From contig QHSI01000021.1 in NCBI GenBank assembly GCA_003221515.1, positions 33,355-90,047 on the forward strand: a stretch of DNA of 56,693 nt. Reading direction: 5' to 3'. Source of the stretch: Candidatus Rokuibacteriota bacterium. Lineage in GTDB: Bacteria > Methylomirabilota > Methylomirabilia > Rokubacteriales > CSP1-6. This document shows positions 36,410-43,980 of this stretch, one piece after another. The notes below the pieces were generated by a model. That model was not told the origin of the DNA, did not search any database, and was given only the letters and a program-made list of their open reading frames with translations. A program made the translations under genes and the position numbers. Position 1 is the stretch's first letter. The number at the start of each line of letters is the position of its first letter.

Positions 36410-37687
36410 TCAGGCGGCGGCGAGCGCCTCGGCGGCGGCGCGCCCGGCCAGCGCGATGTCCGCGTCGGTGTGCGCGAGCGAGACGAAGGCCGCCTCGAAC
36501 TGGGAGGGCGCCAGAAACACGCCACGCTCGAGCATCGCGTGGAAGTAGCGGGCGTAGCGCTTGGTGTCGGCGCGCTTCGCCGACGCGTAGTCGGTCACCG
36601 CGCCGTCGCAGAAGAAGGCCGTGAGCATCGACCCGACCCGGTTGACCGTCAGCGGGACGTTCGCCTTCGCGGCGGCGTCGCGCAGCCCGCGCTCGAGCTC
36701 GCTGCCGAGCGCCTCGAGCCGGCGGTACACCTCGCGGTCGCGGAGCCTGGCCAGCGTCGCCAGCCCCGCCGCGACGGCGAGCGGGTTGCCCGACAGCGTG
36801 CCGGCCTGGTAGACCGCGCCAAGCGGCGCGACGTGATTCATCAGGCTCCGCGATCCACCGTAGGCGCCAACCGGGAGTCCGCCGCCGATGATCTTGCCGA
36901 GGCACGTGAGGTCGGGTTGAACGCCGTAGAGCTCCTGGGCGCCGCCGTAGGCGACGCGGAAGCCCGTGATCACCTCGTCGAAGATCAGGACGGCGTCGTG
37001 AGCCTTCGTGAGCTCGCGAAGCCCTTCGAGGAACCCCGGACGCGGCGGCACGACGCCCATGTTCCCGGCCACGGGCTCGACGATCACCGCGGCGATCTTG
37101 CGCCCGCGCTCGCGGAAGATAGCCCGCACGCCGTCGAGGTCGTTGAAGGCCGCCGTCAGCGTGAGCTGGGCCAGCCGGGCCGGTACGCCGGCGCTGTCGG
37201 GGATGGAGAACGTCGCGCCGCCCGAGCCCGCCTTCACCAGGAGGCTGTCGGAGTGACCGTGATAGCAGCCGTCGAACTTCAGCAGCAGCTCGCGCCCGGT
37301 CGCTCCCCGCGCCACGCGGATCGCGCTCAGCGCGGCCTCGGTCCCCGAGCTCACCAGCCGCACGAGCTCGATCGACGGATACGCCGCGGTGATCGCTTCG
37401 GCCATCTCCACCTCGAGCGCGGTCGGCGCGCCGTAGCTCGTGCCTCGCGCCGCCGCCTCGGTGACGGCCGCGACGACCGTCGGCGCCGCGTGGCCCAGGA
37501 TCAGCGGACCCCAGGAGCCGAGGAAGTCCAGGTACGACCGGCCCTCGACGTCCCAGATCCTGGCGCCCTCGCCCCGCGCGACGAAGAACGGCTCGCCGCC
37601 GACGCCGCGGAAGGCACGCACCGGGCTGTTGACGCCCCCGGGAATCCGGCGGCAGGCCGCTTCGAACAGGCTCTTCGAGTCCCGCAT
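36410..37687 (-). CDS. hemL: Glutamate-1-semialdehyde 2,1-aminomutase
   Basis: PLP-dependent mutase making 5-aminolevulinate from glutamate-1-semialdehyde, the product of HemA. It is 425 residues. N-terminal [14 protein letters not shown] is a family hallmark; [16 protein letters not shown] and [14 protein letters not shown] bind PLP; the Schiff-base lysine is in [17 protein letters not shown]. The ATG shares one base with the mec stop (TGATG). It is separated from the rest of the haem genes by the cysteine module, but same-strand spacing suggests one transcript. Confidence 0.96.
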
Positions 37688-38226
37688 CAGGCGTTCCTTC
37701 CTCGTCGCGCGCCGAGTCCGATCTGCTCCCAGAGTCGGCCGACCGCGAAGAGCACGCGCTCGTGCCACGCCCAACCGTCGACGCCGACGTCGACCGGCGT
37801 GAAGTCTCGCTCGCCCGAGTTCCAGCGAAAGCCGGCGCTGGCTTCCGCCCGCCCGCCGACGACCGACGTGACGATGTAGGTGGCCGCGGGATACGTCGGC
37901 TCGCCGCCGATCAGGGCTTGCTGCTTGTCCGTGGGCGAAAAGTACGCGCCCGCGTCGACGTGGGAGTGATAGATCACCGCGATGTCGAAGCCGTCACCCT
38001 CGAGGCGCCCGATCTTCAGCAAATCCTGAGGATCGATGAAGTACGCCGTCCGCGCGTCGCGCGGATGGCGCTGGGGATCCTTGGCGTGCAGCTGGTCCTG
38101 GATGTTCCGGCACTTGATCAGCTGCCGAACTCGGCCCCGCGTGAGCACGACCCCGCACGATTCCCGCGGGTATTCGTCGACCGCCTGCTGGCGGATCGTC
38201 TCGAGCTCCTCCGCGGTGACGATCAC
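37687..38226 (-). CDS. mec: Mec-like JAMM metallopeptidase
   Basis: Zinc peptidase of the JAB1/MPN/Mov34 (M67) family, 179 residues. The active site is complete: Glu22 in RESCGVVL, then H84-x-H86-x7-S94-x2-D97 in [16 protein letters not shown]. In Mycobacterium, Mec cuts cysteine from the C-terminus of the sulfur carrier CysO. In the Pseudomonas quinolobactin pathway a JAMM enzyme (QbsD) first trims a tail from its carrier. Either fits the adjacent carrier and cysteine synthase. A GTG start overlaps the carrier stop (GTGA). The last 40 residues are an extra segment beyond the JAMM core. Confidence 0.9.
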
Positions 38227-38525
38227 GGCCGGCCGAGGGCTCGGGCACGACCCCCGCCCGCGAGGGCGGGGATGATCGCAACCTCGTCGCCGTCCTTGAG
38301 GAGAGTGCGCACTCCTTGCAGCGATTCGATGGCCTCGTTGTTCACGTAGATGTTCACGTGACGGTGCACTTCGCCCCCTTCGTCGCGCATGAGACCTTTC
38401 AGGCCCTGGTACGAGGCCTCGAGCTGATCGAGCAGCCGACTGATGTCGGGCGCGGCGAGCTCGACGCGATCTCGGTTGTTGGTGACCCGACGGAACGACG
38501 TCGGGATGTACACCGTCACCGCCAT
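38223..38525 (-). CDS. cysO: ThiS/MoaD-like sulfur carrier (CysO type) with C-terminal tail
   Basis: Ubiquitin-fold protein of 100 residues. The MoaD/ThiS fold is seen in VTVYIPTSFRR, NIYVNNEAIESLQG and LLKDGDEVAIIPALAGG. CysO proteins end at the double glycine, whose C-terminus becomes a thiocarboxylate for cysteine synthesis. Here nine more residues (GRARALGRP) follow, so the glycine is masked. Removal of this tail, probably by the adjacent JAMM peptidase, would be needed before activation. The activating E1-like enzyme (MoeZ/MoeB) is not in the window. It starts six bases after the cysM stop. Confidence 0.88.
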   Translation of the reverse strand: MAVTVYIPTSFRRVTNNRDRVELAAPDISRLLDQLEASYQGLKGLMRDEGGEVHRHVNIYVNNEAIESLQGVRTLLKDGDEVAIIPALAGGGRARALGRP

Positions 38526-38531
38526 GCCGAC

Positions 38532-39455
38532 CTATCCTCCCGGGCTCAGGTATCGCTCGCCGGTGTCGGGCAGGACGGTGACGACGAGCTGGCCCCCCGC
38601 CATCTCCGCGGCCACCTGGCACGCCGCGAACGCGGCGGCGCCGGCCGAGACGCCGACCAGCAGGCCTTCTTCGCGGGCGAGCCGGCGCGACCACGCGAGC
38701 GCGTCCTCGTCGCGCACCAGGAGGATCCGGTCGATGATCGCCCGATTGAGGACGCCGGGCACGAACGACGCTCCGATCCCCTGGATCGCGTGAGGCCGCG
38801 CCCGGCCGCCGGAGAGCACCGGCGAGATCGCGGGCTCGACCGCGACCACGCGCACCGCCGGGATCTTCTCCTTGAGGACCTCGCCCACGCCGGTCAGCGT
38901 CCCGCCCGTCCCGACGCCGACGACGAACGCGTCGAGCCGCCCGCCGACCGCGTCCAGGATCTCCACCGCGGTGGTGCGGCGGTGCGCCTCCGGGTTCGCC
39001 GGGTTCTCGAACTGCTGCGGCATGAAGTAGTCGGGATGCTCCCGGAGCAGCTCGCGCGCTGCGTGGACCGCGCCCGTCATCCCCTCGATCGCCGGGGTGA
39101 GATGGAGCTCGGCGCCGAACCGGGCCAGGAGCCGCTGGCGCTCGACGCTCATGTCGTCGGGCATCGTCAGGATCAGCCGGTAGCCTCGCACCGCGGCCGC
39201 CATCGCCAGCCCGATGCCGGTGTTGCCGCTGGTCGGCTCCACGATCGTGGCGCCGGGCTTGAGCACGCCCCGCCGCTCGGCGTCCTCGAGCATCGCGACG
39301 GCGATGCGGTCCTTGACGCTCCCACCGGGATTGAGCGACTCGAGCTTCGCCACCACGGTCGCGCCGCCCGCCTTGGGCAAGCGATTGAGTCGGACCATCG
39401 GCGTGTGGCCGACCAGCTCCAGCACCGAGCTCGCGATCTTCGTCGTCGGGGTCAT
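38532..39455 (-). CDS. cysM: Cysteine synthase (CysM/CysK family)
   Basis: PLP enzyme of the beta-substituting family, 307 residues. The PLP lysine is Lys48 in NPGGSVKDR; the substrate loop is PTSGNTGIGLA; the phosphate-binding loop is GVGTGGTLTG. Neighbours (carrier and JAMM peptidase) suggest it uses the carrier thiocarboxylate with O-phosphoserine, as Mycobacterium CysM does, rather than free sulfide. From sequence alone, ordinary O-acetylserine sulfhydrylase activity cannot be excluded. Its ATG overlaps the stop of the rrf2 gene (ATGA). Confidence 0.92.
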   Translation of the reverse strand: MTPTTKIASSVLELVGHTPMVRLNRLPKAGGATVVAKLESLNPGGSVKDRIAVAMLEDAERRGVLKPGATIVEPTSGNTGIGLAMAAAVRGYRLILTMPDDMSVERQRLLARFGAELHLTPAIEGMTGAVHAARELLREHPDYFMPQQFENPANPEAHRRTTAVEILDAVGGRLDAFVVGVGTGGTLTGVGEVLKEKIPAVRVVAVEPAISPVLSGGRARPHAIQGIGASFVPGVLNRAIIDRILLVRDEDALAWSRRLAREEGLLVGVSAGAAAFAACQVAAEMAGGQLVVTVLPDTGERYLSPGG

Positions 39456-39892
39456 ATGTGATACATCGGGCGGGCCGCGCTCCGGCGCGCGAGCGCGCGA
39501 GCGGCCAGCTCACCGAACGTCAGCCGGTCGACGACCTTCGACACCGCGCTCGAGATCTCCTCCCACAGCTCGGCGAGGTCGTGCCGCTCGCTCGTGGTCC
39601 GGCCGCCCCGGCGCTGCGTCTCGAACGGCGCGCCGGCGCCCTCGACGGCGCGAAGGACGTCGCCGACGGTGATCTCCTCGGGCGGACGCGTGAGATGGTA
39701 ACCGCCGGCCGATCCCCGCTTGGACGTGAGGAGCTCCGCGCGCTTCAGCGCGAGCAAGACCTGCTCGAGGTACCGCTGGGGAATCGCCTGGCGCGCCGCG
39801 ATCTCCTGAATGGGCGTGAGCCCGTGCTGCCGGTGGATGGCCAGGTCGAGCACCGCCTGGATCGCGTACTCGCCCTTCGCCGAGATTCGCAT
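39452..39892 (-). CDS. Rrf2-family regulator without cluster cysteines
   Basis: Winged-helix DNA-binding protein of the Rrf2 family, 146 residues. The start MRISAKGEYAIQAVLDLA, recognition-helix region PQRYLEQVLLALKRAELL and wing KRGSAGGYHL are typical. It contains no cysteine at all, so it cannot bind the Fe-S cluster of IscR or NsrR. In this it is like CymR, the Rrf2 repressor of cysteine metabolism in Gram-positive bacteria that works with cysteine synthase. Being first in line before cysM, it probably controls the cysteine genes. The last 30 residues are an Arg- and Ala-rich tail. Confidence 0.88.
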   Translation of the reverse strand: MRISAKGEYAIQAVLDLAIHRQHGLTPIQEIAARQAIPQRYLEQVLLALKRAELLTSKRGSAGGYHLTRPPEEITVGDVLRAVEGAGAPFETQRRGGRTTSERHDLAELWEEISSAVSKVVDRLTFGELAARALARRSAARPMYHI

Positions 39893-39917
39893 GGTCTAGC
39901 TCAACCTGCTGTTTTTG

Positions 39918-39923
39918 ATCATA
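39918..39923 (-). promoter_or_regulatory. -10-like box before the rrf2-cysM-cysO-mec module
   Basis: Minus-strand TATGAT between hemB and the rrf2 start, about 25 bases before the ATG. The -35 region is poor. It would allow the cysteine module to be expressed independently of the haem genes. Confidence 0.35.
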
Positions 39924-39934
39924 GGGTTCGCCTC

Positions 39935-39951
39935 GCCGTGCCGAGCACGGC
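39935..39951 (-). terminator. Hairpin directly after hemB
   Basis: A seven-base-pair stem GCCGTGC/GCACGGC with a three-base loop, beginning at the base after the hemB stop. No T run follows. It could end or dampen transcription between hemB and rrf2, or be an operator for the Rrf2 protein, since it is a near-perfect inverted repeat just ahead of that gene. Confidence 0.4.
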
Positions 39952-40944
39952 TCAGCTCACACTGCCGCCGCCACGCTCGAGAACGCGCGCCGCGTCTCTG
40001 GCGAAGTACGTGATCACGACGTCCGCGCCGGCGCGCCGGATCGACGTGAGCGCTTCCATCATCGCGCGCTCCTCGTCGAGCCAGCCCAGGCGGCCGGCCG
40101 CGCGGATCATCGCGTATTCACCCGAGACCGAGTAGGCGGCCAGCGGAACGCCGAACTCCGCTTTGGCCCGCGAGATGATGTCGAGGTACGGCAGCGCGGG
40201 CTTGACCATGACGATGTCGGCGCCCTCGTCGAGATCGAGCGCGATCTCGCGCATGGCCTCGTTGCCGTTGGCCGGGTCCATCTGGTACGAGCGCCGATCG
40301 CCGAACTGCGGCGTCGACTCGGCGGCGTCGCGGAAGGGACCGTAGAAGGTCGACGCGTACTTCGCCGAGTAGGCCATGATCGGCGTGTCGGTGAAGGTCG
40401 CATCGTCGAGCGCGTCGCGGATCGAGCCGATCCGGCCGTCCATCATGTCGGAGGGCGCGACCATGTCGGCGCCCGCCTCGGCGTGCGAGATCGCGACCCG
40501 CGAGAGCAGCTCGAGCGTCGCGTCGTTGCGGACGGTGCCGCCCTCGACGATCCCGCAGTGGCCGTGACTCGTGTACTGGCACAGGCACACGTCGGTGATG
40601 ACGAGCAGGTCCGGGACCACGTCCTTCACCGCCCGCACCGCCTGCTGCACGATGCCGTCCTCGGCGTACGCTTCGGAGCCGCGCGGGTCCTTGTCGGATG
40701 GGAGGCCGAACAGGAGCACGGCCGGGATGCCCATGCTCGCGATGTCCTTCGTGTCCTTCACCATCTCGTCGATCGAGAGATGGAACTGCCCGGGCATCGA
40801 CGCGATCGGCTCGCGGACGCCGCGGCCGTGCACCGCGAAGAGCGGATGCACGAGGTCGTCGACGGCCAGCGCCGTCTCGCGAACGAGCTTACGGAGCAGC
40901 GGCTTCTCGCGCAACCGCCGGGGGCGGAACAACGGATGTGCCAT
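39952..40944 (-). CDS. hemB: Porphobilinogen synthase
   Basis: Condenses two 5-aminolevulinate molecules to porphobilinogen. It is 330 residues. The catalytic lysines are in [18 protein letters not shown] and [13 protein letters not shown] cysteine-rich metal site [14 protein letters not shown] shows the zinc-dependent form. The ATG at 40944 shares one base with the hemD stop (TGATG). The longer upstream frame (to 41625) is an out-of-phase reading of hemD. Confidence 0.97.
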
Positions 40945-41789
40945 CACACGCTCCTTCTGGATCGGGGACCGGCGTTTCGCCGGGTGCGGGAGAAGTAGTC
41001 CGCCAGCGCTCTCGCCAGGGCCGGAATCGTGTACTCGGTCGGCATCACGTCGGTGGCCAGGCCGTACTCGGCGGCGGTCGCCGCGGTGATCGGGCCGATC
41101 GACGCGACCGCCGTCTTCCCTCGCCACGCGCTCCGCTCGTCCTCGCTGAACTGCTCGGCGAAGTTGCGCGCGGTGGACGAGCTCGTGAACGTGACGGCGT
41201 CGACGTTGCCCGACGCCAGCGCCTCGCGCAGACGGACGACGCCGTCTTCCACCCGGCGCGTCTGATACGCGGGCACCTCGGTGACGGAGACGCCCAGGCG
41301 CCGGAGCTCCACGACCAGGATGTCGCGGGTGTCCTTCGCCCTCGGCAGCAGCACGCGATCGGCGGGCCCGAGGACCGCCCGTAGTCGCTCCACCAGCCCC
41401 TCGGCCCGGTATTCGGCCGGGACCGCCTCGACCCGGACGCCGTGCTCGGCGAGCGCGTCGGCGGTGGCCGGCCCGATCGCCGCCACCCGCTTGCGCGCGA
41501 TCGCCGCCCACGGGATCCCCCGCGCGACCAGACGCCGGTCCACCATGGCGACGCCGTTCACGCTCGTGAAGATCAGCCAGGTGAACGAGTCGAGCGCCGC
41601 GAGCGCGGTGTCGAGCGGCTCCCACGAGGCCGGGGGCTCGATCACGATCGTTGGCGCTTGTAATACGCGCGCGCCGGCCGCTTCCAGGAGCTGAACGAAC
41701 CGCTGCGCCTGGGCGCGGGCGCGCGTGACCACGATGGTGCGGCCCTTCAGCGGCTGCGGCTCGGCGGTGGCGCGGCTCACGCGGGCCAT
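40944..41789 (-). CDS. hemD: Uroporphyrinogen-III synthase
   Basis: Closes and inverts ring D of hydroxymethylbilane. It is 281 residues with the two-lobed fold of the family. Sequence is poorly conserved generally, but [13 protein letters not shown] at the start, [34 protein letters not shown] and [12 protein letters not shown] are typical stretches. The place between hemC and hemB supports the call. It overlaps hemC by 13 bases. Confidence 0.93.
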
Positions 41790-42715
41790 GGGGCCTCCGG
41801 CCGCAGCGCGGTCACCGAGGCGGCGCCCTGCTCGAGCAGCGCCTCGGCGAGCCGGCGGCCCAATCCCTCCGGTGCCGCGGGGCTCGCGCTGGCGCTGCCG
41901 CGAAGGACCTTGCGTCCGTCCTCGCTCGCGACCAGCGCGGTCATTCGGAGCGTGCCGGCGGCGATCACGGCGTGCGCCGCCATCGGCGAGTTGCAGGAGG
42001 CGCCGAGGCGGCGGAGGTACGCCCGCTCGGCCAGCGCGCAGGCGCGCGTCGCCGCGTGGTCCAGCCGCTCCAGCAAGGCGCCGGCGCGGCGATCGTCGGC
42101 CCGCGCCTCGATGGCCAGGACGCCCTGCCCCACCGCGGGCACGAACACCTCCGGGTCCAGCGGCTGCGCGTGCGGGGCGGTCAACCCGAGGCGCGCCAGA
42201 CCGGCTGCGGCGAGCAGCACTCCGTCGAAGGCGCCGCGCTCGAGTCTGCGCAGCCGCGTATCGACGTTGCCGCGGATGGGCTCGACCACGAGGTCCGGCC
42301 GAAGCGCCAGCGCGAGGGCACGCCGGCGGGGGCTCGAGGTGCCCAGCACCGCGCCCGGGCGCAGGTCCTCGAAGCGCGTCCGTTCCCGCGCCACGAGAAC
42401 GTCGCGCGGGTCCGCGCGCTCGGGAAACGCCGCGAGCGCCAGACCGGCCGGAAGATTGGCGGGCAGGTCCTTGAGGCTGTGGACGGCGCAGTCGAGGGCA
42501 CCGGCCAGGAGCATCTGCTCGATCTCGCGGACGAAGAGCCCCTTGCCGCCCACGTCGGCCAGTCGCGCGTCCAGACGCCGGTCGCCCTCCGTCCGCACCG
42601 GCACGATCTCGACCTCCACGCCCTGCTCGCGCAGGGGGGTCGCGACCGCCTCGGCCTGGACCAGCGCCAGCGGGCTTCCCCGCGTGCCGATCTTGAAGGT
42701 CGCCGTCGCGGTCAT
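41777..42715 (-). CDS. hemC: Hydroxymethylbilane synthase
   Basis: Polymerises four porphobilinogens on a dipyrromethane cofactor. It is 312 residues. The cofactor cysteine is in [13 protein letters not shown]; the active-site stretch [12 protein letters not shown] and the arginine-rich [12 protein letters not shown] are intact. The ATG at 42715 overlaps the hemA stop (ATGA). The longer frame to 42757 adds no conserved sequence. Confidence 0.97.
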
Positions 42716-43980
42716 TTCCGTCCCAGCCCGAAGAGCTCGTGGACGAGCTCGAGCCACGAGCGGGACGACCCGGCGCGAGACGACTCGCGCAGCTTGGTGA
42801 TCGGCGCGTGCAGGATCTTGTTGACGATCGCCGTCGACATCGCCTCGATCGCCTCGCGCGTCTCCGGCGTCGCGGCGGGCAGCCGTCCCAGCGTGCGCTT
42901 GACCTCGCCCGAGCGGATCGCCTCGAGGCGCTCCCGGAGCGACACGATCGTGGGGATCACTTCGACGTCGCCGAGCCGGGCGAGGAACTTGGCCACCTCG
43001 CGGTCGACGATCGCCTCGGCCCGGTGGGCCTCGCGGCCACGCTCCCGGATGTTGGCGTCGACGACCTGCTTCAGGTCGTCGATGTCGTAGCAGTACACGT
43101 CGTCCAGCGTGTCGACCGAGTCCTCCACGTCGCGCGGGACCGCGATGTCGATGAAGAACAGCGGCCGTCCGCGGCGCGCGTGGATGATCCGCTGGACCGC
43201 CTCGCGCTTGATCACCGGCTCCGGCGCGCCGGTGGACGTGATCACGATGTCGACGGCGGCCAGCGCGGTCGCCAGCTCGTCGAAGGGCACGGCGGTGCCG
43301 GCCAGCGCGCGGGCCATCTCTTGCGCCCGGGCCCCGGTCCGGTTGGTGACGTAGATCGGGAACGCGCCGTGCTCGACGAGGTGTCGGGCCGCGAGCTCGC
43401 TCATCTTGCCTGCGCCGACGAGGAGGACCGCCTTACCGTCGAGCCCCTCGAAGATCTTCTTCGCCAGCTCGACCGCGGCGAACGAGACGGAGACGGCGTG
43501 CCGCGCGATCTCCGTCTCCGAGCGGACCCGCTTGGCGACGGCGAAGGCCTGCGTGAACAGCGTGTGGAGCGCCGGACCGACCGTCTCGCACGACTGAGCG
43601 AGCGCGAACGCGTCCTTCACCTGGCCGAGGATCTGGGGCTCGCCGATCATCATCGAGTCGAGGCTCGACGCCACCCGGAAGGCGTGGCGCACCGCCTCGG
43701 CGTCGGCGTGCGTGTAGAGGAGCGCCTCGACCGGCGCCGTCTCGATCCCGCGGTGACGGCACAGCCGGCGGAACAGCGCCCCGCGCGCCTCGCCCGGCAC
43801 GTCGGCGACGGCGTACACCTCGACCCGGTTGCACGTCGACAAGACCAGGACCTCGCGCACCGCGCCCGACGCGGCGGCGTCGCGGAGCAGCTCGCGCAGC
43901 TTGTCCTCGTCGACGGCGAGCTGCTCCCGCAGCTCAACCGGCGCGTTCCGGTGCGAGAGGCCGGCCACGAAGAGCGGCAT
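42712..43980 (-). CDS. hemA: Glutamyl-tRNA reductase
   Basis: First committed step of C5-pathway tetrapyrrole synthesis: reduces glutamyl-tRNA to glutamate-1-semialdehyde. It is 422 residues. The catalytic cysteine is Cys50 in LSTCNRVEVYA; MIGEPQILGQVKDAF and the NADPH-binding VLLVGAGKMSELAARHL follow; the C-terminal dimerisation helices lie after about residue 310. It abuts the hemX stop. HemL is encoded about 5 kb downstream in the same direction. Confidence 0.97.
   Translation of the reverse strand: MPLFVAGLSHRNAPVELREQLAVDEDKLRELLRDAAASGAVREVLVLSTCNRVEVYAVADVPGEARGALFRRLCRHRGIETAPVEALLYTHADAEAVRHAFRVASSLDSMMIGEPQILGQVKDAFALAQSCETVGPALHTLFTQAFAVAKRVRSETEIARHAVSVSFAAVELAKKIFEGLDGKAVLLVGAGKMSELAARHLVEHGAFPIYVTNRTGARAQEMARALAGTAVPFDELATALAAVDIVITSTGAPEPVIKREAVQRIIHARRGRPLFFIDIAVPRDVEDSVDTLDDVYCYDIDDLKQVVDANIRERGREAHRAEAIVDREVAKFLARLGDVEVIPTIVSLRERLEAIRSGEVKRTLGRLPAATPETREAIEAMSTAIVNKILHAPITKLRESSRAGSSRSWLELVHELFGLGRK

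What the first reader, a model, noticed from the sequence alone, without database searches (positions are those of the whole stretch)
38223..38280. Sulfur carrier with a masked di-glycine
The carrier continues GRARALGRP after the LAGG end that should become the thiocarboxylate. The JAMM peptidase gene overlaps its stop. In quinolobactin synthesis a JAMM enzyme trims a two-residue tail from QbsE; a nine-residue tail in a CysO-type carrier would make the same peptidase act first as activator and perhaps again in releasing cysteine. That is a proteolytic switch on cysteine synthesis.
Basis: partly seen in the sequence, partly recalled or inferred. Interest (0 to 1): 0.7.

Follow-up and report, generated by a model that had tools for sequence, protein, structure and literature searches.

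The report
Sulfur carrier made as masked precursor
In this soil bacterium (a Rokubacterium) a small sulfur-carrying protein is made with extra residues covering its active end, and comparison with about 150 other genomes suggests that the protein-cutting enzyme encoded next to it removes them; this is a new twist on a known trick, not a new kind of system.

Summary
The 100-aa CysO/ThiS-like carrier (38223-38525, minus) reads ...[17 protein letters not shown], and its TGA overlaps the GTG of a JAMM peptidase gene. It is not an indel: five congeners carry 8-9-aa tails with the same 4-nt overlap, and the closest lacks the G run. Tail sequence drifts freely while Gly-Gly is invariant. All 53 Rokubacterial carriers of this type with a readable carrier end have something after Gly-Gly: 1-29 residues, or the JAMM domain itself (three congeners and two other genera are direct carrier-JAMM fusions). 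In other Methylomirabilota the carrier is fused to its E1 or, for a second carrier, to a cysteine synthase. A paralog not linked to JAMM ends exactly at Gly-Gly in 12 of 45. In 50 genomes from other phyla, a masked carrier goes with a Mec-type JAMM gene (21/23, versus 9/27 for exposed; p=3e-5, uncorrected for relatedness). Best reading: a disposable C-terminal mask that the adjacent JAMM removes before the carrier can be loaded. The dual role in cysteine release is plausible but undemonstrated; the synthase is CysK-type, and nothing supports a regulatory 'switch'. JAMM maturation of carriers is known (QbsE, HcyS, MoaD-MoaE); a masked cysteine-operon carrier is a new variant.

The parts
38253..38525 (-). 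sulfur-carrier (ThiS/CysO-like beta-grasp) core, 91 aa ending at Gly90-Gly91
   Evidence: Pfam ThiS 1.3e-13; M. tuberculosis CysO 3dwg_C 1.2e-15
38253..38258 (-). internal di-glycine that should become the thiocarboxylate end
   Evidence: aligned with the C-terminus of CysO; invariant in the alignment of 13 relatives
38226..38252 (-). nine-residue C-terminal mask GRARALGRP
   Evidence: translation; tails of 8-9 aa in five congeners; sequence drifts much faster than the core
38223..38226 (-). GTGA overlap of carrier stop and JAMM start (likely translational coupling)
   Evidence: same overlap in most relatives
37687..38226 (-). JAMM (Prok-JAB) metallopeptidase gene, 179 aa; proposed unmasking enzyme
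   Evidence: Pfam PF14464 3.7e-14; only such match in the genome
37927..37968 (-). JAMM metal/catalytic motif [14 protein letters not shown] (H-x-H-x7-S-x2-D); the motif glutamate is Glu22
   Evidence: read from the translation; retained in the rows shown of the alignment of relatives
38532..39455 (-). PLP-dependent cysteine synthase, CysK (O-acetylserine sulfhydrylase) type
   Evidence: TIGR01139 cysK 426 bits, cutoff 351; best PDB matches are CysK chains
39452..39892 (-). Rrf2-family regulator heading the operon
   Evidence: Pfam Rrf2 3.8e-35; CymR model 98 bits, below its cutoff of 195

Best explanation
The carrier is translated as an inactive precursor whose Gly-Gly is capped by a dispensable C-terminal peptide. 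The JAMM peptidase encoded by the overlapping next gene cuts after Gly91 and exposes the terminal glycine. The rhodanese-MoeB E1 encoded elsewhere in the genome can then adenylate and thiolate it, so that it can donate sulfur, most likely to the cysteine synthase of the same operon. The same JAMM probably also hydrolyses carrier adducts afterwards. Shown by sequence: the mask, the overlap, the intact JAMM motif, the single JAMM and the single full-length E1, mask retention across the family, and the fusions. Inferred: the cleavage itself, its site, loading by this E1, delivery to the synthase, and the second cut.
For: (1) A C-terminal Gly carboxylate is the chemical substrate of ThiF/MoeB-type E1s (established knowledge), so a capped or fused carrier of this type has to be cut first. 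(2) Mask retained in 53 of 53 JAMM-linked Rokubacterial carriers while its sequence and length vary, and Gly-Gly kept throughout, including in fusions to JAMM, E1, cysteine synthase or NIL. (3) Carrier-JAMM fusions in G003, G005 and G006 (one supported clade) and in G009 and G023. (4) Modelled natural fusion: both domains confident, while the Gly-Gly linker (89-91) is the low-confidence joint; its domains match CysO (3dwg_C) and JAMM1 (5lda). (5) JAMM co-occurrence: masked 21/23 versus exposed 9/27, p=3e-5. (6) Experimental precedents: a Deinococcus JAMM cuts a MoaD-MoaE fusion to leave a C-terminal Gly (PMC8832034); MoaX must be cut after Gly-Gly to work (PMC4326299). QbsE/QbsD and HcyS/HcyD are cited from memory.
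Against: No biochemical data. The association tests are not corrected for relatedness, and most genomes are MAGs. Two masked carriers (L181, L219) sit in MAGs where no JAMM was found; two Rokubacterial MAGs lacking this operon (G030, G085) keep a second carrier ending GG-R without a detected JAMM, so a one-residue cap may be removed by something else or tolerated. The synthase is CysK-type, so delivery of sulfur from the carrier to it is unproven.
Confidence: 0.75

Rival explanations
1. The carrier is a ubiquitin-like modifier (SAMP/TtuB-like) rather than a dedicated cysteine donor: the JAMM matures it and also removes it from target proteins, and the cysteine synthase neighbour only reflects sulfur supply.
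For: Best NCBIfam models, both below cutoff, are SAMP1 for the carrier and desampylase for the JAMM; JAMM domain matches PfJAMM1-SAMP2 (5lda); the synthase is CysK-type and the genome has CysE, so sulfide plus O-acetylserine could suffice.
Against: No E2/E3-like gene was noticed in the operon; the neighbourhood is a cysteine synthase with an Rrf2 regulator; the closest solved carriers are CysO proteins.
Confidence: 0.15
2. The tail is neutral baggage fixed by the overlap with the JAMM start codon; a general peptidase trims it, or the carrier works without trimming.
For: Tail sequence evolves without constraint; lengths vary widely; GG-R carriers occur in two incomplete MAGs without a detected JAMM.
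Against: An overlap is possible with an exposed end (GGATGA), yet none of 53 has it; tails persist where genes no longer overlap (L016, L017, L020); full-domain fusions cannot be trimmed by an exopeptidase; masked carriers go with JAMM across phyla.
Confidence: 0.12
3. One reading: cleavage is a regulated proteolytic switch on cysteine synthesis.
For: JAMM is positioned to act before loading and after cysteine formation; MoaX cleavage was described as slow or regulated (PMC4326299).
Against: No sign of regulation; protease and carrier genes overlap and are sometimes one polypeptide; an Rrf2 regulator gene heads the operon.
Confidence: 0.08
4. Sequencing or assembly indel in the G run; the true gene ends at Gly-Gly or is fused to the JAMM.
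For: A one-base insertion would give an in-frame fusion like that of sister species.
Against: Five independent assemblies keep the same frame and overlap, and G002 lacks the homopolymer.
Confidence: 0.02

Closest known systems
CysO-CysM-Mec cysteine pathway (Mycobacterium tuberculosis)
   Same: ThiS-fold carrier of the same size and Gly-Gly position, cysteine synthase and JAMM in one operon
   Different: CysO ends at Gly-Gly, so Mec only releases cysteine; here Gly-Gly is capped, gene order differs, and the synthase is CysK-type
HcyS-HcyD (Wolinella homocysteine pathway) and QbsE-QbsD (quinolobactin); from memory
   Same: carrier made with 1-2 extra residues removed by a dedicated JAMM; HcyD also releases the product
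   Different: different sulfur acceptors and gene clusters; here the cap reaches 9 residues, and in relatives it is the protease itself
JAMM-cleaved MoaD-MoaE fusions (Deinococcus DR0402/DR2607; M. tuberculosis MoaX, protease unidentified) (PMC8832034, PMC4326299)
   Same: carrier freed by cutting after the Gly-Gly of a natural fusion
   Different: molybdopterin synthase fusion, not a cysteine-operon carrier; no small-peptide mask
Operon class 4c of Iyer et al. 2006 (PMC1779556): ThiS/MoaD, E1-rhodanese, JAB, cysteine synthase
   Same: same gene set; the authors predicted that JAB frees fused carriers
   Different: E1 is elsewhere in this genome; masks and carrier-JAMM fusions of this kind were not found in the passages read

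Membership tests
CysO-CysM-Mec system | ThiS-fold carrier related to CysO | tested here: met
   Pfam ThiS 1.3e-13; 3dwg_C 1.2e-15; Foldseek TMt 0.85 for the carrier domain of the congener fusion
CysO-CysM-Mec system | carrier ends at Gly-Gly | tested here: not met
   nine residues follow
CysO-CysM-Mec system | O-phosphoserine-type CysM | tested here: not met
   over the cutoff for cysK, under it for cysM; best PDB matches are CysK chains and M. tuberculosis CysM is not among the 60 shown; genome has CysE
CysO-CysM-Mec system | JAMM hydrolase with intact H-x-H-x7-S-x2-D motif in the operon | tested here: met
CysO-CysM-Mec system | E1 with rhodanese domain in the genome | tested here: met
   single full-length match, rhodanese-MoeB, with in-frame UGA at the active-site Cys position
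CysO-CysM-Mec system | hydrolysis of carrier-cysteine | not testable with these tools
   needs biochemistry
JAMM-matured sulfur carriers (QbsE/HcyS/MoaD-MoaE type) | residues or a domain after Gly-Gly | tested here: met
JAMM-matured sulfur carriers (QbsE/HcyS/MoaD-MoaE type) | dedicated JAMM encoded with the carrier | tested here: met
   overlapping genes, fused in relatives
JAMM-matured sulfur carriers (QbsE/HcyS/MoaD-MoaE type) | cleavage after the second Gly | not testable with these tools
   needs mass spectrometry
SAMP-type ubiquitin-like modifiers | SAMP1/desampylase model membership | tested here: not met
   SAMP1 51.6 bits, cutoff 60; desampylase 39.1, cutoff 130

The most novel reading that the evidence does not exclude
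Methylomirabilota run a precursor-style sulfur-relay economy: carriers are made capped or chained to their protease, E1 or cysteine synthase, and JAMM peptidases both activate them and release their products, so sulfur flow passes the same protease twice; in Rokubacteria the E1 that loads them uses selenocysteine.
Probability: 0.35. Interest if true: 0.65.

Novelty: new variant of a known kind. Interest (0 to 1): 0.48.

Why it matters
It suggests that JAMM-dependent maturation, best known from siderophore, methionine and molybdopterin carriers, also governs cysteine-operon carriers in a whole phylum, and that it can evolve into a direct carrier-protease fusion. It gives a simple, testable reason why many bacterial sulfur-carrier genes sit next to JAMM genes, with a genomic prediction (masked carrier implies JAMM) that already holds in 21 of 23 genomes outside the phylum.

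Tried and rejected
Sequencing indel: rejected, since relatives keep the frame and one lacks the G run. Programmed frameshift producing a fusion: rejected, the slippery run is not conserved. Tail as a conserved functional peptide: rejected, codon positions 1-2 change about as fast as position 3 in the tail but much slower in the core. IMG/VR viral contigs: no relative. Cis versus trans cutting in the fusion: not decided, because the model's domain placement is uncertain (pTM 0.63). Literature search for the Wolinella paper gave only papers that cite it or share words; it is used from memory.

Full report
What is there. On the minus strand lie, in order, an Rrf2-family regulator (39452-39892), a cysteine synthase (38532-39455), a ThiS/CysO-like carrier (38223-38525) and a JAMM peptidase (37687-38226), followed by hemL. 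The carrier reads MAVTVYIP...[21 protein letters not shown]. Its TGA overlaps the GTG of the JAMM gene by four bases. Gly90-Gly91 align with the C-terminal end of M. tuberculosis CysO. The JAMM has the intact H-S-H-x7-S-x2-D motif. Close relatives carry Candidatus Rokubacteria (Methylomirabilota) titles.

Not an artefact. Among eight congeners, G001, G002, G004, G007 and G008 have 8-9 residue tails with the same 4-nt overlap; G003, G005 and G006 have the carrier fused in frame to the JAMM through LAGG-A[SR][TA]-IVTAEE. G002 lacks the G run but keeps frame and tail length. Within the tail, first and second codon positions change about as fast as the third, while in the core they change about three to four times slower: the tail has no visible sequence constraint, whereas Gly-Gly does.

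A family-wide mask. In 53 carriers of this type from Rokubacteria, none ends at Gly-Gly (one ends AGGG, ambiguous). Tails are 1-29 residues, some made of PALAGGG repeats, and five are JAMM fusions. A tree of carrier plus JAMM shows the three fused congeners as one supported clade nested among tailed ones, and the other two fusions near a 2-residue-tail genome of the same genus as one of them. In other families of the phylum the carrier is fused to a MoeB-type E1, and a second carrier in two genomes is fused to a cysteine synthase, with the di-glycine motif kept. A paralog next to threonine synthase, not JAMM-linked, ends exactly at Gly-Gly in 12 of 45 (Fisher p=3.5e-5 against 0 of 53; rows are related, so this is only indicative).

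Masked carriers go with JAMM. From 80 loci in GTDB genomes, tails were read and a Prok-JAB gene was sought in 50 genomes outside the phylum. Counting matches better than 1e-9 as Mec-type (weaker ones look like RadC-type JAB proteins by length), masked carriers have it in 21 of 23 and exposed ones in 9 of 27 (p=3.3e-5). The two exceptions are small MAGs. Verrucomicrobia and Cyanobacteria dominate the exposed class, so relatedness inflates the test. Two Rokubacterial MAGs without this operon (G030, G085) retain a GG-R paralog with no detected JAMM, so one-residue caps are weaker evidence than long tails and fusions.

Mechanism. A thiocarboxylate can only form on a free C-terminal glycine, so the capped carrier has to be cut. 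This genome has a single Prok-JAB match, the adjacent gene, and a single full-length ThiF/MoeB E1, a rhodanese-MoeB fusion. The AlphaFold model of the natural fusion has two confident domains matching CysO and JAMM1 structures, joined by a low-confidence Gly-Gly linker. Cutting by JAMM after the Gly of a carrier fusion has been shown in Deinococcus (PMC8832034), MoaX needs cutting after Gly-Gly (PMC4326299), and Iyer et al. predicted the same role for JAB peptidases (PMC1779556). I therefore hold JAMM maturation to be likely (0.75). Delivery of sulfur to the neighbouring synthase and a second cut releasing cysteine are inferences: the synthase is CysK-type and CysE is present. I found nothing for a regulatory switch.

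Novelty. JAMM maturation of carriers is known; the cap on a cysteine-operon carrier, its retention across a family, and the carrier-JAMM and carrier-E1 chains in this phylum make a new variant. I did not find this described in the papers searched, but most subscription papers are not held.

Noticed in passing
L142:1060-2340 (G000:C126:55434-56714): The only full-length ThiF/MoeB E1 of this genome is a rhodanese-E1 fusion with an in-frame UGA at the active-site Cys position (GLVPS-U-SEAGVLG). The UGA and a conserved hairpin-forming stretch after it (CCUGGGCGUGCUCCCAGG) recur in the 20 loci of this genome and relatives that my pattern could read, and a tRNA-Sec gene is present: a likely selenocysteine sulfur-activating enzyme. 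Sec-MoeB is a known family (PMC1088965).
   Followed up: yes
L051:1777-3308 and loci L174-L223: A carrier paralog lies directly downstream of threonine synthase in Rokubacteria, Verrucomicrobia, Cyanobacteria, Aquificota and others, an unexplained and widespread pairing; possibly a sulfur route using O-phosphohomoserine.
   Followed up: partly
L212:2501-3013: A deltaproteobacterial carrier next to threonine synthase is fused after Gly-Gly to a NIL domain, a domain I recall as linked to homocysteine formation.
   Followed up: partly
L040, L043, L182, L208: Carrier-E1, carrier-cysteine synthase and carrier-synthase-CBS fusions with the GG motif kept inside the chain.
   Followed up: partly
L016, L017, L020, L092, L095, L105: Carrier tails built of repeated PALAGGG or PALAGG units, i.e. 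several potential cut sites in tandem.
   Followed up: no
L036 (G029): The carrier frame shifts near residue 72, so the ORF joins the JAMM while the LAGG end lies in another frame (LAGGCR*); assembly error or decay.
   Followed up: partly
window 36410-43980: The operon is flanked by genes that read as heme synthesis: hemL on one side and hemB, hemD, hemC and hemA-like genes on the other (by reading the ORF list; only hemL was tested, as Aminotran_3).
   Followed up: no
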